A stretch of 40,766 nt of DNA, from positions 1 through 40,766 of IMG/VR virus record IMGVR_UViG_3300025133_000259; one strand, written 5' to 3'. The position numbers were made by a program, and so were the translations under genes. A model generated the notes under the pieces. The model was not told where the DNA came from. It saw only the letters and a list, made by a program, of their open reading frames with translations, and made no database searches. Shown piece after piece: positions 163-26,278 of the stretch (the first letter of the stretch is position 1; each line of letters starts with the position of its first letter). Source of the DNA: a virus.

Positions 163-1407
163 TTATTTGCCGCTTTTTACAATCTTTTTTAAACGACGGA
201 CGCCTTCTTTAATCACCGCTATGTCTGGTCCGTAAGAGAACCTGACGTGATTGGAGAACCGAGATGTCCCTGGGCGTCGCTTGCCTGGGTTTACGTCAAA
301 GAACTCACCAGGCACAACGATGACCTGCTCTTCCATAGCCGCTCTGAAGAAGCTCATCCCATCGTTGATCCCGTCGGGCAGGGCTGAAACATTGCCCCAG
401 GCATAAAACGCACCATCGGGCTCTCGCTCAAAAATAACTCCCATCTCCTGCAAGCCGTCAAGCATGAGTCGGCGCTTTTCGCGGAAGCATAGTTTAAGAG
501 CCGCAGTCTCCTGCTTCATAGCCGAAGGATCTAGCAAAGGAACTATTGCTCGTTGAGCCGGGCGACAGGCACCGCCGTCAAGGAAGCTGCCCGCGGAGGT
601 AACAGATTCAATAACATGCTCTGGTCCAACTATCCAAGAGATGCGCCAGCCTGGATATCGCCAGTTCTTTGTCGCACCGTCAAGAATAACTACAGGGTCA
701 GCGTTAACATCTTCAACATACCGAGCAGCACTTAAAGTTTCATCAAGGGCTAGACCTGAATATACATAAGAGCTATAGAACTCGTCCATTAGCATATAGC
801 AATCAAACTCTCTTCCGATGCCGACCCAATCTTCTAAGGCTTTGCCTTTGATGGTCTTGCCCGTGGGATTACAAGGGTTGGAAACCAGCACAGCGCCGAG
901 ACCGCGACCGTGGACTTCCCTGCGAAGATTGTTTGTCGTAAACGCATATCCCTTTTCAGGATCAAGCAAGATTGGAATAGGGTTGAAGCGATTAAATGTA
1001 GAAAGCAATTCTTCATACGCAGTATAATCTGGCACGAAGTGACCTAGGTTAATGTTCCCAAGTGATGCAGCCAGTCTAGCCAGCGCAAGCCTGCCGCCTG
1101 AGACGACAGAAACATTCTTTGCCGTATACTTTGAGGCTTTGCCTTGTCGGAAAGTTTCATTATAATAGTTGGCGATAGCCTCTCTTAGCTCAGGCAAGCC
1201 AGAGACGGGAGCGTATTCGTTATCAGCGTCAACTACTTTAATGTTTTCTATTCTCTCCACTCCCCCTGGAATGAGATCAGTCTGTGGCTGACCCTGCCCC
1301 AAGTTGCACCAGTCAGGATTACCTCTATAGAAACCCAGCTTGCTTGCCTCTTGAACTACATAAACAACACCTGTTCTTGGAACTTTTCTAAACACACTAT
1401 CTGACAT
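163..1407 (-). CDS. PLP-dependent aminotransferase, class I/II
   Basis: A 414-residue fold-type I pyridoxal-phosphate enzyme of full length for the aspartate/aromatic aminotransferase group. Visible motifs are YAPVSGLPELREAI (65-78), SNPCNPTG (176-183, Asn180), MDEFYSSY (207-214, Asp208 and Tyr211 for the cofactor), the Schiff-base lysine Lys247 in DGATKNWRYPGWR with Arg255 for the phosphate, and the substrate-carboxylate arginine Arg389 in HVRFSYG. The family moves amino groups between amino and keto acids; close relatives include ACC synthase, which uses S-adenosylmethionine, so the substrate is open. The start has an AGGA ribosome site 6-7 bases upstream. It lies last in a run of minus-strand genes after a 101-residue hypothetical protein. 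All catalytic residues are present, so it is probably active. Such an enzyme is rare in phages and was probably taken from a bacterium. Confidence 0.9.
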   Translation of the reverse strand: MSDSVFRKVPRTGVVYVVQEASKLGFYRGNPDWCNLGQGQPQTDLIPGGVERIENIKVVDADNEYAPVSGLPELREAIANYYNETFRQGKASKYTAKNVSVVSGGRLALARLAASLGNINLGHFVPDYTAYEELLSTFNRFNPIPILLDPEKGYAFTTNNLRREVHGRGLGAVLVSNPCNPTGKTIKGKALEDWVGIGREFDCYMLMDEFYSSYVYSGLALDETLSAARYVEDVNADPVVILDGATKNWRYPGWRISWIVGPEHVIESVTSAGSFLDGGACRPAQRAIVPLLDPSAMKQETAALKLCFREKRRLMLDGLQEMGVIFEREPDGAFYAWGNVSALPDGINDGMSFFRAAMEEQVIVVPGEFFDVNPGKRRPGTSRFSNHVRFSYGPDIAVIKEGVRRLKKIVKSGK

Positions 1408-12923: not shown

Positions 12924-13373
12924 TTAGCTACCCTCTACGTTTAACACTTCAATCTCAAAAATAAGGTCTTCGCCTGCAAGTGGATGGTTCAAATCAGCCG
13001 TTACTGATTCGTCAGTTACTTCCGTGATCGTTGCCATTAAATGATCGCCGTCTTCATTCATTAGCGGGATAGGCATGCCCGCTGCGAGTTCTGTGCCTTC
13101 TGGAAAGGCTGCACGCTCTAGAGTAGTGACCGCTTCGGGATGGCGAGTGCCGTAGGCGTCTTCCGCAAGGATAGTAACGGTCTTGTTCTCACCCTCGTTC
13201 ATGCCGACTAATGCGTTGTTAAACCCTGCGATTAGTTCGCCAGAGCCCACAGTCGTAGTCAGTGGCTGCCCTCGCTCATGGGAGTTGTCAAACTGCGTCC
13301 CATCTCTGAATCTTCCTGTGTAGTGGATGGTCACAATGTTTCCGTCTTGTATTTGGTTGCTGTTGTTAGTCAT
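12924..13373 (-). CDS. FKBP-type peptidyl-prolyl isomerase, SlyD-like
   Basis: 149 residues. The FKBP half is VTIHYTGRFRDGTQFDNSHE, with GELIAGFNNALVGMNEGENK. The insert-in-flap chaperone domain (EDAYGTRHPEAVTTLERAAF to about 118) follows, then NHPLAGEDLIFEIEVL returns to the FKBP barrel. This is the SlyD layout: prolyl isomerisation plus binding of unfolded chains. The His-rich metal-binding tail of E. coli SlyD is missing. It sits directly between the Mom-like gene and groEL, and its stop is 3 bases from the GroEL start region, so the two chaperones are co-expressed. Confidence 0.9.
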   Translation of the reverse strand: MTNNSNQIQDGNIVTIHYTGRFRDGTQFDNSHERGQPLTTTVGSGELIAGFNNALVGMNEGENKTVTILAEDAYGTRHPEAVTTLERAAFPEGTELAAGMPIPLMNEDGDHLMATITEVTDESVTADLNHPLAGEDLIFEIEVLNVEGS

Positions 13374-13374
13374 A

Positions 13375-14295
13375 CTAGTTTCCTCTTTCTTTAGGATAAG
13401 GTAGGTTTACCTTCTTTGGATTATATTGTACAAACATTTCTTTAAGATTTTTAGTCTCTTTTTTAGTTTTCCCGAGAATATAGCAATATTTGTGTTTTGG
13501 TGGGACAACACGGGAATCGCAAGAGTCTCTAAATCGCTTCTCCTCCGCTTTTATCTTGTCTTTTAAACCAGCAGGCATCGTATCCCATTTGGGAGTGTAT
13601 TTGCCTAGGTAGGTCTTCCACTCTTCATAAGGCATTCCAAGGGCTTCGGCGTAGCGTCTGTATTTTGATTTCTTTCTGAACTCTCTGTCGCTGAACCAAC
13701 CTTTTTCTGGGTGTTGAGGGTCTTTGTATACCTTGTTTGTTCCCGAGGTTTGACCTAGATAGGTCCAGTTGAGTGCTTGATAGATTGTTCCCAGTTCTTT
13801 GGCTAGTGGGTCGCTGTATGCTTCAAAACATCTGAACTCTGTATTCTTAACCATCCACTTGCACGCTCGTGATACTAACCAAGAGCCCATGTTCTTTGGA
13901 GCCCAACTAATTGATGCACCCCTTGAGACGAGTTTGATGATGTTTTTATTCTCTTTGCCGAGAAGATGACTGAACGCATTAGGAGTAGCCATTACAATGA
14001 CGCCAGCCAAAGTGCCCGAGGGCTTTAGGCGTGCTGTGAAGCGATGAGTGGGTCGGTTGGGTAGACATCCCAAGAACTCGTGTTTGATGATAAACTCTTT
14101 GATTTCTCTACACTGGTCTTTGTCTGACTTATCCACATAGGCAAAGTCAAAGTCCGAGGTGCGGAGGGCTTCAGCCCACTCAATAGTTTTTCCTAGTTCC
14201 TGTAAGTCGTCTGTGGTATTCCGAAGTCTTACTTCGTATTGCCAGCAGTGATTTTCTTGAAGGTCTTTGAATCGTTCAAAGGGGTCGGCTTTCAC
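13375..14295 (-). CDS. Mom-like GNAT DNA-modification protein
   Basis: A 306-residue protein with the features of the phage Mu Mom family (GNAT fold; in Mu, Mom changes adenine to a carbamoylmethyl form that blocks restriction). The core is about 80-185: HRFTARLKPSGTLAGVIVMA, ISWAPKNMGSWLVSRACKWM and the hallmark EAYSDP then GTIYQALNWTYLG (159-181). The C-terminus shows the family's usual close, KHKYCYILGKTKKETKNL, then LPYPKER. It begins with GTG behind a GAGGG site and overlaps nothing. The protein is longer than Mu Mom, with an extra basic segment (about 200-260) that may bind DNA. The neighbours are chaperones, so timing is unclear. A Mom-fold relative with another substrate remains possible. 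Confidence 0.75.
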   Translation of the reverse strand: MKADPFERFKDLQENHCWQYEVRLRNTTDDLQELGKTIEWAEALRTSDFDFAYVDKSDKDQCREIKEFIIKHEFLGCLPNRPTHRFTARLKPSGTLAGVIVMATPNAFSHLLGKENKNIIKLVSRGASISWAPKNMGSWLVSRACKWMVKNTEFRCFEAYSDPLAKELGTIYQALNWTYLGQTSGTNKVYKDPQHPEKGWFSDREFRKKSKYRRYAEALGMPYEEWKTYLGKYTPKWDTMPAGLKDKIKAEEKRFRDSCDSRVVPPKHKYCYILGKTKKETKNLKEMFVQYNPKKVNLPYPKERGN

Positions 14296-14310: not shown

Positions 14311-15774
14311 CTATACCCATTCATGAATTTTTCTGTTATCTCTGGGGTACATCCCCACCCGCATATTATTAATCCCGTAGTTGGCGCGACCAGAGGCGAA
14401 GCGAGTCACCAGGGTTGGAGCATAGCCTTCGTCAAAATCGCCGTCAAGATCTTTTCTTACCATAAGGTGATAGGCGCTTAAGTTATATACCCCTTGGGTA
14501 TCCGTTTTTTGAATTTCAAAGGGTCCTTGTGCGACTACATCCACATTCTCCACCCCCCCTTCTCCGGCGGGGTCATATTCGTTTCCGAACATCGCTAGCA
14601 TCTTTAGGCGAGCATCTTTGATTACTCTGCCATAACTTAGACCTCTTGGATACTCCCAACGAATAGGATTTCCTTCTTCGTCACGATTAACAACTTCCAG
14701 CTTACTGCGTAGTGTTTTTATAAAATCTACAACCTCAGGGTGCAAAAAGATATCTTGCCCTGCTTTCTTAGTTACTCCGCCCCACTGACCGAACGACTTT
14801 GGAGCACTGCCATCTTTATGAGAGATGTAAATTTTGTCTCCATCTTCGCCGTAAAGAATAAAATCTGTCTTAGGGTCCATTCCGTTGACTTTTCCCATAG
14901 AGCGAACGCCAACTATCCCATCAAATGTTTCTAGCAGTTCACCCTTCTGAGACAAAAGCCTTACAGTTATAGGTTGCTTATCGTTGTTACTTATAGCCGC
15001 CTGAATGAGTTTTTGCAACTCGCCTTTGGCGAAGTCTTCTTTCTCAGTGCCAGATTCTGACGATTTGCCCCCGAATTCGGCAGTCTTGTGCAGTTTCCGA
15101 AGAGAGATGCCTTTGCCGTCGGCGGTGGGAAACATTCTAGAATAAGGACCAAGAATCTTCTGTACGTCTTCCAAAGAAAAGCCGCCCTTGTCGCGGAGCT
15201 TCCCTAGAAGGGCTATCAGCTTGGGATCTTTTTTAAGAAGGACCTCCTCCTCGCTCCCTTCTATCTGGAAGGGTTCTTCGTTCTCTATTTTTTTAATCAA
15301 AACTGCTAGACGAGAGGGTTGACGCACAAACATGGGAAAATCCAAGCGTGCCTCCTCTACAACTTCAGCCTCCCCTGCTTCAACAAGCAGGTTGCGGGAG
15401 AAGCTATCTATCATCCCCTCTAGCACAGAGAAACCTTCGTGTATCTTCGCAGCGTCCACTTGTTGTTTCTCAATCGCCCCTATTAACTTTGGGCTGTGCC
15501 ATTGGAGTTCTTCCGCCACATCAGGGCAACCGCATGACTCTGCGGCTGATGCGACATACTCATCAACATTATTAGCCGATAGACCATCTAGGAAAAGACC
15601 CTCAATAAAAGCCTGTTGTTCTGTGAACGCCATGGTTCCCCAGTCACGCTCATAGTTGAAGCCATTAATGTTTAGCCGGCGGGTTAGTTCCCCGACCTTT
15701 TCCTTGAACTCACCAGTAATGTCTGGCTTGGACGCCAGTTCTACAGCTTGTTCCTTAGTTACCTTGAAGGACAT
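14311..15774 (-). CDS. uncharacterised 487-residue protein
   Basis: I do not recognise this family. The first 170 residues are helical and acidic (KVTKEQAVELASKPDITGEF). The second half is a mixed alpha/beta domain: KLHKTAEFGGKSS, then DFILYGEDGDKIYISHKDGS, FGQWGGVTKKAG and RGLSYGRVIKDARLKMLAMF. The strand-turn-strand ending in SHK with an upstream Asp is the spacing of PD-(D/E)xK nuclease-type cores, except that Ser replaces the acidic residue, so this is only a hint. The middle Cys pair (CGC) could bind metal. It overlaps the upstream small gene by 20 bases and may have its own promoter at 15796-15825. Confidence 0.6.
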   Translation of the reverse strand: MSFKVTKEQAVELASKPDITGEFKEKVGELTRRLNINGFNYERDWGTMAFTEQQAFIEGLFLDGLSANNVDEYVASAAESCGCPDVAEELQWHSPKLIGAIEKQQVDAAKIHEGFSVLEGMIDSFSRNLLVEAGEAEVVEEARLDFPMFVRQPSRLAVLIKKIENEEPFQIEGSEEEVLLKKDPKLIALLGKLRDKGGFSLEDVQKILGPYSRMFPTADGKGISLRKLHKTAEFGGKSSESGTEKEDFAKGELQKLIQAAISNNDKQPITVRLLSQKGELLETFDGIVGVRSMGKVNGMDPKTDFILYGEDGDKIYISHKDGSAPKSFGQWGGVTKKAGQDIFLHPEVVDFIKTLRSKLEVVNRDEEGNPIRWEYPRGLSYGRVIKDARLKMLAMFGNEYDPAGEGGVENVDVVAQGPFEIQKTDTQGVYNLSAYHLMVRKDLDGDFDEGYAPTLVTRFASGRANYGINNMRVGMYPRDNRKIHEWV

Positions 15775-17764: not shown

Positions 17765-18856
17765 TTAAAACCCCGAGTTATTCTTTTTTATTGCTCCCGA
17801 GACGTTGACGATATGGGGCTTGCTTTCTACAAATCCCGCGGAGGTTTGCTGAATCCATTGAGCGTTGGCTCGTAGCTCAGTTAGGTTTCTTGCATTGCTA
17901 TAGCTGCATCCGCTCTTGAGCCCGCCGATGAGATTAGCGATGGTGTCAATTACGGTGCTCCGGCAGGGAACATAGGAGGTCACTCCTTCTGCTGCGGAAT
18001 GAGTTCCTCGCCAATCAAGTTGGGCGTCCTTGGAAGCCATGCCTCTGTATAGTTTTACACAGGTGCCATCGGCAAGTTTCTTGCGCTTGCCTGGCGACTC
18101 CAAAGTGCCTCCAAGAAGAGAGCCGCACATTACAAAGTCGGCACCTGCGGCGATGGCTTTGGTTATGTCGCCGCTGTTCTTGATGCCGCCGTCGGCGATT
18201 ATCTTGACATCTCGGTCAGTGCGAGCGCATTCAAAGATGGTCTGGAGCCCTGGCATGCCGTGCCCCGTTTGAACCCGTGTGCTACAGATTGATCCTCCTC
18301 CAATATTACAGCGAACACTGTCGGCTCCCCAATCGGCTAGGTCGTTCACCCCTTCTAAAGTGGCTACATTGCCTGCCATGATGTGGAGAGCGCCCTTGGG
18401 GAAGTGTTGTCTTAGGCTTTCTAGGGCATTCTTCATCAGGAGGTGATGACCGTGAGCTACATCTACGCATAGAATGTTTGCCCCAGCCTTCACTACTTCT
18501 TCCGCTCTTTCTAAAAAATCTCCCGCTACGCCGACTGCTGCGCCGATGTTGGGTAGGAAAACGGAGTCCGTTAATAGTTGGTTGTGCGCCTCCAAAACCA
18601 TTAAGGCTTGCTGCTCAATCGTGTTGTAGCGGTGGATGATGGCTGCCCCGCCTGCTTTCGCCATAGCGACTGCCATGTCTGTCTCGCTCACTGTATCCAT
18701 CGGCGAGGCGAAGATAGGGGAGGTTAGTCTGGTACCGGCACCCAAGTTAGAGCTTACATCTACCTGTTTTCGGCTTGTGATGTCGCTGTATTGCGGTTTA
18801 AGCAAAACGTCGTCATAAGCCAATGCTAGTGGAATGTCTAAGTCATTATTATTCAC
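17765..18856 (-). CDS. IMP dehydrogenase/GMP reductase family, GMP reductase-like
   Basis: A 363-residue TIM-barrel enzyme. The N-terminal [16 protein letters not shown] is the family signature, with the catalytic Cys191 in [19 protein letters not shown] (186-203), [10 protein letters not shown] (222-231), [11 protein letters not shown] and AEGVTSYVP (289-297). It has no CBS (Bateman) domain. The flap between GMAS and AEG is short, as in GMP reductase, and lacks the Arg-Tyr dyad of IMP dehydrogenase flaps, so GMP reductase (GMP to IMP, NADPH) is the better reading. Either reaction would alter the purine pool for phage DNA. It is the last large gene before the sigma-4-like gene and overlaps the zinc-protein gene by 8 bases. 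Confidence 0.88.
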
Positions 18857-25315: not shown

Positions 25316-26278
25316 TTACCCCCAGGCGAAGCCATTTCCAAAATGACCCCATCCCGCCGTGCGGCTATAAGTAGGGGTTTTTAACTCAAGCAAGTTTGCG
25401 ATGCCGTCAGGCGTTAAATCATACTCGGTGATATTGTAAGAAACTCCATCAACAATAGCCGTGGCTTGAACTGGCTCTGGGTGTCCGATTGCATATGCGA
25501 GATACACCCTCACTTCATTCGCGTTGTGTGTTTTAAGATAATCTACTGCGATGCGGCGTGCCATATAAGCAGCGGACCTATCAACCTTGGAAGGGTCTTT
25601 CCCGCTGAATGCCCCTCCGCCGATTGGAACTCTTGGTCCATAGTTGTCTACTACGAGCTTGCGACCCGTAAGACCTGTATCGGCATCAAAGCCGCCAACT
25701 TCCCAATCGCCAGCAGGATTAGCATGTATCTCTATATCTGCCGTGTAGGCATCTTCGCCAAGAGACTCAAGCCAGTATTCTATTCTTTCTTGAAGGACCG
25801 CAGTTGGGGCATTTTGAAAACTTGCAACGACAGCGGTGATTTCGCCTGCGTCTAAGGTAATCTGTGTTTTTCCATCATAGGGGAACTCGGCATATAATAT
25901 TTGACATAGCTGCCTTGCTAAGAAAAGTTCCTGCGGGATGAGTGAGGGGTTTTCGTTACAGGCATAGCCGACCATAATACCTTGGTCGCCTGCACCGCCT
26001 GTGTCAACTCCTTGAGAGATGAAGCCACTTTGTTTAATAATATTGACATCAACTACATCTACATCAGAGTAGACATTGCGGACGACTTGTTCAAAATCAA
26101 CCTCGGCGGATGTGGTGACTTCCCCCATCAATACAATTTTACGATGACCGCCCATAGTCTCAATCGCAACCCTTGAATGAGGGTCTTGAGCCAGACAGGC
26201 GTCCAACACTGCATCTGAAATCCTATCACAGATTTTGTCTGGGTGGTGTGGGCTAACACACTCTGCTGTTCTAATCAT
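25316..26278 (-). CDS. metK: S-adenosylmethionine synthetase (MetK)
   Basis: A 320-residue methionine adenosyltransferase making SAM from ATP and methionine; most MetK proteins have 380-400 residues, so this one is trimmed. The key motifs are whole: the ATP-site HHPDKICDRISDAV (11-24), GAGDQGIMVGYA (96-107) and the phosphate loop GGGAFSGKDPSKVDRSAAY (about 231-249). The shorter length comes from loops between the three repeats, so activity is plausible. No SAM-using enzyme is clear in the window, but the PLP enzyme at 163 or methyltransferases elsewhere could use it. The enzyme would offset SAM hydrolysis by other phages or feed DNA methylation. It lies between the metalloprotease gene and the hypothetical gene at 24910. 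Confidence 0.92.
   Translation of the reverse strand: MIRTAECVSPHHPDKICDRISDAVLDACLAQDPHSRVAIETMGGHRKIVLMGEVTTSAEVDFEQVVRNVYSDVDVVDVNIIKQSGFISQGVDTGGAGDQGIMVGYACNENPSLIPQELFLARQLCQILYAEFPYDGKTQITLDAGEITAVVASFQNAPTAVLQERIEYWLESLGEDAYTADIEIHANPAGDWEVGGFDADTGLTGRKLVVDNYGPRVPIGGGAFSGKDPSKVDRSAAYMARRIAVDYLKTHNANEVRVYLAYAIGHPEPVQATAIVDGVSYNITEYDLTPDGIANLLELKTPTYSRTAGWGHFGNGFAWG

What the first reader, a model, noticed from the sequence alone, without database searches (positions are those of the whole stretch)
13375..14295. Mom-like DNA-hypermodification protein in a chaperone operon
The 306-residue protein shows the GNAT core and the hallmark EAYSDP...GTIYQALNWTYLG segment and the KHKY...LPYPKER ending of the phage Mu Mom family. 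In Mu this enzyme modifies adenine and protects DNA from restriction. Here it has an extra basic segment and no Com-like translational activator visible nearby. If active, the phage DNA would carry a bulky adenine modification and resist many host nucleases.
Basis: partly seen in the sequence, partly recalled or inferred. Interest (0 to 1): 0.7.

Follow-up and report, generated by a model that had tools for sequence, protein, structure and literature searches.

The report
Phage Mom-like DNA-modification enzyme, altered subfamily
This phage gene encodes a relative of phage Mu's DNA-decorating enzyme Mom, but it belongs to a large, hardly described branch in which several otherwise invariant Mom positions are systematically replaced, so it probably modifies phage DNA while its exact chemistry cannot be assumed to be Mu's.

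Summary
On the minus strand, 13375-14295 encodes 306 residues that match Pfam Mom (PF25680, 51 bits, cut-off 27) and PHROG 1384. A confident AlphaFold model (pLDDT 94.9) finds crystal Mu Mom (8bv8) as its best PDB match. FKBP and GroEL genes follow directly. No Com gene or start-site hairpin was found. The protein belongs to an 'EWLG' subfamily (81 sequences sampled) separated from Mu-type 'HYS' Mom (28) by one supported branch. The two classes share Ser124 (S124A is deposited as the inactive mutant of Mu Mom), Arg111, Asp149 and Tyr159 (Mu 241-residue numbering). Seven otherwise near-invariant Mom positions are changed, including His58 to Glu and Tyr59 to Trp/Phe. DNA modification is therefore likely, but the Mu product (N6-carbamoylmethyl-adenine) is unproven. 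Broad nuclease resistance is not supported: the window almost lacks TCGA (2 found, 141 expected), GGCC (4/146) and GTAC (11/78), so selection by restriction was not lifted. A close relative (73% DNA identity) lacks mom and FKBP at the same site and does not avoid TCGA. Verdict: real; a new variant of a known family.

The parts
13375..14295 (-). mom-like gene (306 aa, GTG start), EWLG subfamily of the Mom superfamily
14071..14079 (-). E73-F74-L75, replacing the family's H-Y-S (Mu241 H58-Y59-S60)
   Evidence: Glu in all 81 EWLG members, His in all 28 HYS members
13921..13923 (-). R125 (Mu241 R111), invariant in both classes
13882..13884 (-). S138, equivalent to Mu Ser124, whose Ala mutant is deposited as 'inactive mutant' (8bv8)
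13753..13824 (-). core segment EAYSDP-LAKEL-GTIYQALNWTYLG (residues 158-181): D162 and Y172 kept, A159 and E167 switched
12924..13373 (-). FKBP-type peptidyl-prolyl isomerase, start codon one base after the mom stop; fused in frame to mom in relative L041
11331..12920 (-). GroEL-type chaperonin; directly follows mom (or mom-FKBP) in L016, L039, L041 and L046
14311..15774 (-). 487-aa gene ending 15 bases before mom; N-terminal ~140 aa shared with mom-less L123, C-terminal part (PHROG 13937) swapped between phages, conserved DPK[ST]DF...ISHKDG motif (possible nuclease, untested)

Best explanation
The protein is a phage DNA-modifying enzyme with the Mom (GNAT-like) fold, from a separate 'EWLG' subfamily. 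It most likely attaches a small group to bases of the phage's own DNA late in infection, using the serine/arginine/aspartate/tyrosine core shared with Mu Mom. The rest of the conserved neighbourhood is rebuilt: Glu-Trp/Phe in place of His-Tyr, and lost acidic residues. The attached group, the target base and the sequence specificity may therefore differ from Mu's N6-carbamoylmethyl-adenine. The gene is an accessory cassette together with an FKBP gene, expressed without a recognisable Com activator. Shown by sequence and model: family membership, fold, subfamily split, gene order, presence/absence in a close relative. Inferred: DNA as substrate, protective role, late timing.
For: Pfam and PHROG Mom matches, with 56 of 56 members of the alignment matching Pfam Mom. 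The AF2 model, pLDDT 94.9 and pTM 0.89, has crystal Mu Mom as best PDB match, E 2.8e-7, followed by GNATs, and Mom of Salmonella phage FSL SP-031 as best viral match. A Mu-type control model finds the same structure at 7e-13. The Ser whose mutant is deposited as inactive, plus Arg, Asp and Tyr, are kept in 98-100% of the clade. The subfamily split has support 100/97. DNA-related context: in three relatives the same domain is fused to a DUF7487 region carrying a D...ExK stretch; several viral structural matches are proteins named endonuclease-like; an N6/N4 DNA methylase of one sequence cluster lies within six genes in 11 relatives. Mom-endonuclease fusions in jumbo phages are described in PMC7824862. 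The closest phage L123/L124 lacks mom and FKBP at the same site.
Against: No biochemical evidence exists for any EWLG member in what was read. The switched residues could mean another substrate (tRNA or protein), as in many GNATs. The strong palindrome avoidance shows that any modification has not removed selection by restriction enzymes. Neighbours such as GroEL say nothing about DNA chemistry.
Confidence: 0.68

Rival explanations
1. It makes exactly the Mu modification, N6-carbamoylmethyl-adenine. The substitutions are neutral re-packing of the same active site.
For: Same fold and same Ser/Arg/Asp/Tyr core. Pfam treats both classes as one family.
Against: Seven near-invariant positions change together and stay changed in 81 diverse members. 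Zero TCGA(C/G)NY sites remain although about 35 are expected, so a Mu-like (C/G)A(C/G)NPy modification (specificity from general knowledge) evidently did not spare TCGA sites.
Confidence: 0.35
2. The Mom-fold enzyme is one half of an attack-and-protect pair: a nearby or fused nuclease cuts unmodified host or rival DNA while Mom shields the phage's own DNA.
For: DUF7487-Mom fusions in L050, L051 and L066 with a D...ExK stretch; jumbo-phage Mom-endonuclease fusions in the literature; upstream genes next to mom are highly variable between phages and some carry D...(E/S)xK-like motifs.
Against: No Pfam, PHROG or PDB match identifies the window's upstream gene as a nuclease. Mom-less L123 keeps a gene with the same N-terminal part at the same place, so the pairing is not strict.
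Confidence: 0.25
3. A GNAT enzyme acting on protein or tRNA, resembling Mom only by shared ancestry.
For: GNATs with such substrates appear among the structural matches. Conserved Mom residues are replaced.
Against: Mu Mom is the best PDB match, and the clade members match Pfam Mom and no general acetyltransferase family. Fusion partners and neighbours are DNA-related.
Confidence: 0.12

Closest known systems
Mom of Escherichia phage Mu (PDB 8bv8, 'Methylcarbamoylase mom')
   Same: GNAT-like fold, best PDB match; Ser124, Arg111, Asp149, Tyr159, Gly156, Asn163 equivalents kept; the ...YPK C-terminus
   Different: 19% identity; His58-Tyr59-Ser60 becomes Glu-Phe-Leu; Glu108, Asp116, Glu123 and Ser146 replaced; longer N-terminus and an insert; no overlapping com gene
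Uncharacterised protein of Vibrio phage 501E54-1 (CAH9014377.1)
   Same: 43-44% identity over the full length, same EWLG class
   Different: Different neighbourhood: a putative Dam methylase and thymidylate synthase nearby, no GroEL or FKBP annotated in the stretch examined
Jumbo-phage Mom-endonuclease fusions (PMC7824862)
   Same: Mom domain predicted to modify phage DNA
   Different: The window protein is not fused to a nuclease; only three of its relatives carry a fused DUF7487 region
Mom-like proteins of T4-like and Salmonella phages (AS-szw, Phynn, VSiP, FSL SP-031)
   Same: Mom family and fold
   Different: The ones aligned here (AS-szw, Phynn, VSiP) are HYS class and shorter, about 195-220 aa

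Membership tests
Mom superfamily (Pfam PF25680 / PHROG 1384) | Profile match above the curated cut-off | tested here: met
   51.2 bits against 27.1; 56 of 56 alignment members match
Mom superfamily (Pfam PF25680 / PHROG 1384) | GNAT-like Mom fold | tested here: met
   Top PDB match 8bv8, E 2.8e-7, probability 1.00
Mom superfamily (Pfam PF25680 / PHROG 1384) | Core residues equivalent to Mu Ser124, Arg111, Asp149, Tyr159 | tested here: met
   S138, R125, D162, Y172; conserved in both classes
Mu-type (HYS) Mom proper | His58-Tyr59-Ser60, Glu108, Asp116, Glu123, Ser146 | tested here: not met
   E73-F74-L75, L122, S130, G137, A159 in the window; the switch is fixed or nearly so in its clade
Mu-type (HYS) Mom proper | Product N6-carbamoylmethyl-adenine in DNA | not testable with these tools
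   Needs LC-MS of DNA
Mu com/mom operon | Upstream overlapping com (CCCC zinc finger) and a translation-inhibiting hairpin | tested here: not met
   No such ORF near mom; RNA fold z -0.6
Canonical acetyl-CoA GNAT | [QR]xxGx[GA] CoA-pyrophosphate signature | tested here: not met
   Absent in the window and in all 109 Mom sequences compared, Mu included

The most novel reading that the evidence does not exclude
EWLG Mom proteins form a widespread, uncharacterised family of phage DNA-modifying enzymes that install a base modification different from N6-carbamoylmethyl-adenine, with a rebuilt (Glu-Trp) active site.
Probability: 0.4. Interest if true: 0.72.

Novelty: new variant of a known kind. Interest (0 to 1): 0.5.

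Why it matters
Mom is a rare GNAT-fold enzyme assigned to DNA-base chemistry, and its mechanism is not settled in the sources read. A large natural subfamily that keeps the serine/arginine/aspartate/tyrosine core while swapping the neighbouring residues gives a direct test of which residues set the transferred group. A pair of related phages, one with and one without the mom-FKBP cassette and with opposite restriction-site avoidance, gives a natural comparison for what such a modification protects against.

Tried and rejected
1) Com-like activator: none found. 2) Direct sequence match of the single protein to PDB: none at E<=1; the clade profile and the model found 8bv8. 3) 'Mom and DNA methylases exclude each other': dropped, because in L124 the methylase genes lie where the window contig has already ended, and in other lineages both co-occur. 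4) 'Mom relaxes restriction avoidance': not seen; mom-carrying contigs still lack lineage-specific palindromes. The avoidance may predate mom, so it does not disprove activity. 6) Subfamily tree without the diagnostic columns (quick search): perfect separation is lost by one change (2 instead of 1; long branches Mu and L105 meet), but starred branches do not force more than one. 7) The Karambelkar 2020 mutational paper on Mu Mom is not held, so only the PDB entry's S124A was used as functional evidence.

Full report
What is there. The window is a complete IMG/VR record of 40,766 bases, a linear phage fragment. On its minus strand, 13375-14295 encodes a 306-residue protein. It matches Pfam Mom (E 1.6e-13) and PHROG 1384 'Mom-like DNA modification protein' (E 1.4e-20). 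Its best named relative is an unannotated protein of Vibrio phage 501E54-1, 43% identical along the whole length. Against its closest relative L041 it shows 116 synonymous-only and 73 non-synonymous codon differences, i.e. purifying selection.

Fold. A model built with 56 relatives has mean pLDDT 94.9 and pTM 0.89. Its best PDB match is 8bv8, phage Mu Mom S124A, 'inactive mutant' (E 2.8e-7), then ordinary GNATs. In the viral library the best match is Mom of Salmonella phage FSL SP-031. A control model of a Mu-type member finds 8bv8 at 7e-13.

A separate subfamily. Relatives were collected from viral contigs, phage records and bacterial genomes; 109 proteins were aligned. They fall into two classes: 'EWLG' (81, with the window) and 'HYS' (28, with Mu). 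In Mu 241-residue numbering, Arg111, Ser124, Asp149, Gly156, Tyr159, Asn163 and Gly168 are kept in both. The switches are His58 to Glu (100% against 100%), Tyr59 to Trp (96%; Phe in the window), Ser60 to Leu, Glu108 to Leu, Asp116 to Ser/His, Glu123 to Ala/Gly, Ser146 to Ala; the usual His at position 154 (Arg in Mu) is Glu. Independent profile-profile alignment gives the same register at the HYS/EFL site; the smaller first alignment placed it one residue off. In the tree the classes are separated by one branch with support 100/97. When the diagnostic columns are removed and a quick search is used, long branches (Mu among them) blur the split slightly. Among phage records only Vibrio phage 501E54-1 and phage f2b1 were identified as EWLG carriers. 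Because the deposited inactivating position (Ser124, window S138) is kept, an active enzyme is likely. Because its surroundings are rebuilt, the product need not be Mu's. The EWLG sample was drawn with the window as a query, so its size is not a census.

Context. Downstream, FKBP starts one base after the mom stop codon, then GroEL. GroEL directly follows mom in L016, L039, L041 and L046. In L041 mom and FKBP form one open frame (a single contig, so possibly an assembly or sequencing effect). Endolysin, a lytic transglycosylase and a possible holin lie nearby, which suggests a late region, as for Mu mom (inference). In other lineages an N6/N4 DNA methylase or a UvdE-type protein lies close to mom, and in three relatives the protein is fused to a DUF7487 region with a D...ExK stretch. 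No Com-like gene or start-site hairpin was seen.

A natural comparison. Contigs L123 and L124 share 73% DNA identity with the window over 19.8 kb and 80-92% protein identity in many genes, but have no mom and no FKBP between the upstream gene and GroEL; their records contain no mom elsewhere. The cassette is therefore dispensable in this lineage, or was gained by the window's branch. These records are fragments, so a mom outside them cannot be excluded.

Restriction-site avoidance. The window contains 2 TCGA (141 expected), 4 GGCC (146), 11 GTAC (78) and 61 GATC (156). Synonymous-codon shuffles give z of -16, -11, -9 and -7. L123 has 116 TCGA where 131 are expected, but no CGCG (47 expected). 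In aligned DNA, 94 TCGA sites are found only in L123, one only in the window and one in both. None of about 35 expected TCGA(C/G)NY sites is left in the window. Other mom-carrying phages avoid other palindromes. Carrying mom has thus not lifted selection against these sites, including adenine-containing ones. This weakens the claim of broad nuclease resistance. It does not show that the enzyme is inactive, since avoidance may be older than mom and GGCC contains no adenine.

Judgement. The finding is real and the family call correct. Function as a DNA-modifying enzyme is likely but unproven; its exact chemistry is open. It is best described as a new variant of a known kind.

Noticed in passing
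window 1-40766: Extreme depletion of 4-bp palindromes TCGA (2/141), GGCC (4/146), GTAC (11/78), with weaker depletion of GATC, CGCG and others; absent or different in a relative 73% identical in DNA.
   Followed up: partly
L041:5977-7428: Mom and FKBP-type isomerase in one uninterrupted open frame (484 aa).
   Followed up: no
window 14311-15774: 487-aa gene with conserved N-terminal part and exchangeable C-terminal part (PHROG 13937) containing DPK[ST]DF...ISHKDG; the genes at this place in related phages are mostly different large proteins, some with D...(E/S)xK-like motifs.
   Followed up: partly
window 25316-26278: Phage-encoded S-adenosylmethionine synthetase (all three Pfam domains) with no DNA methylase recognised among the window proteins scanned.
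   Followed up: no
window 17765-18856: IMP dehydrogenase / GMP reductase-like protein, with relatives in many phages of this lineage.
   Followed up: no
window 163-1407: Class I/II aminotransferase in a phage; 85% identical counterpart in L001.
   Followed up: no
L050, L051, L066: DUF7487-Mom fusions (about 660 aa) near a Gp23-type major capsid gene.
   Followed up: no
L040:4456-7886: Possible modification module: a PDF...FKECK-bearing protein, N6/N4 DNA methylase, Mom, UvdE-type protein in a row.
   Followed up: partly
L107, L115, L116, L117: Two Mom-like genes of the HYS class in tandem.
   Followed up: no
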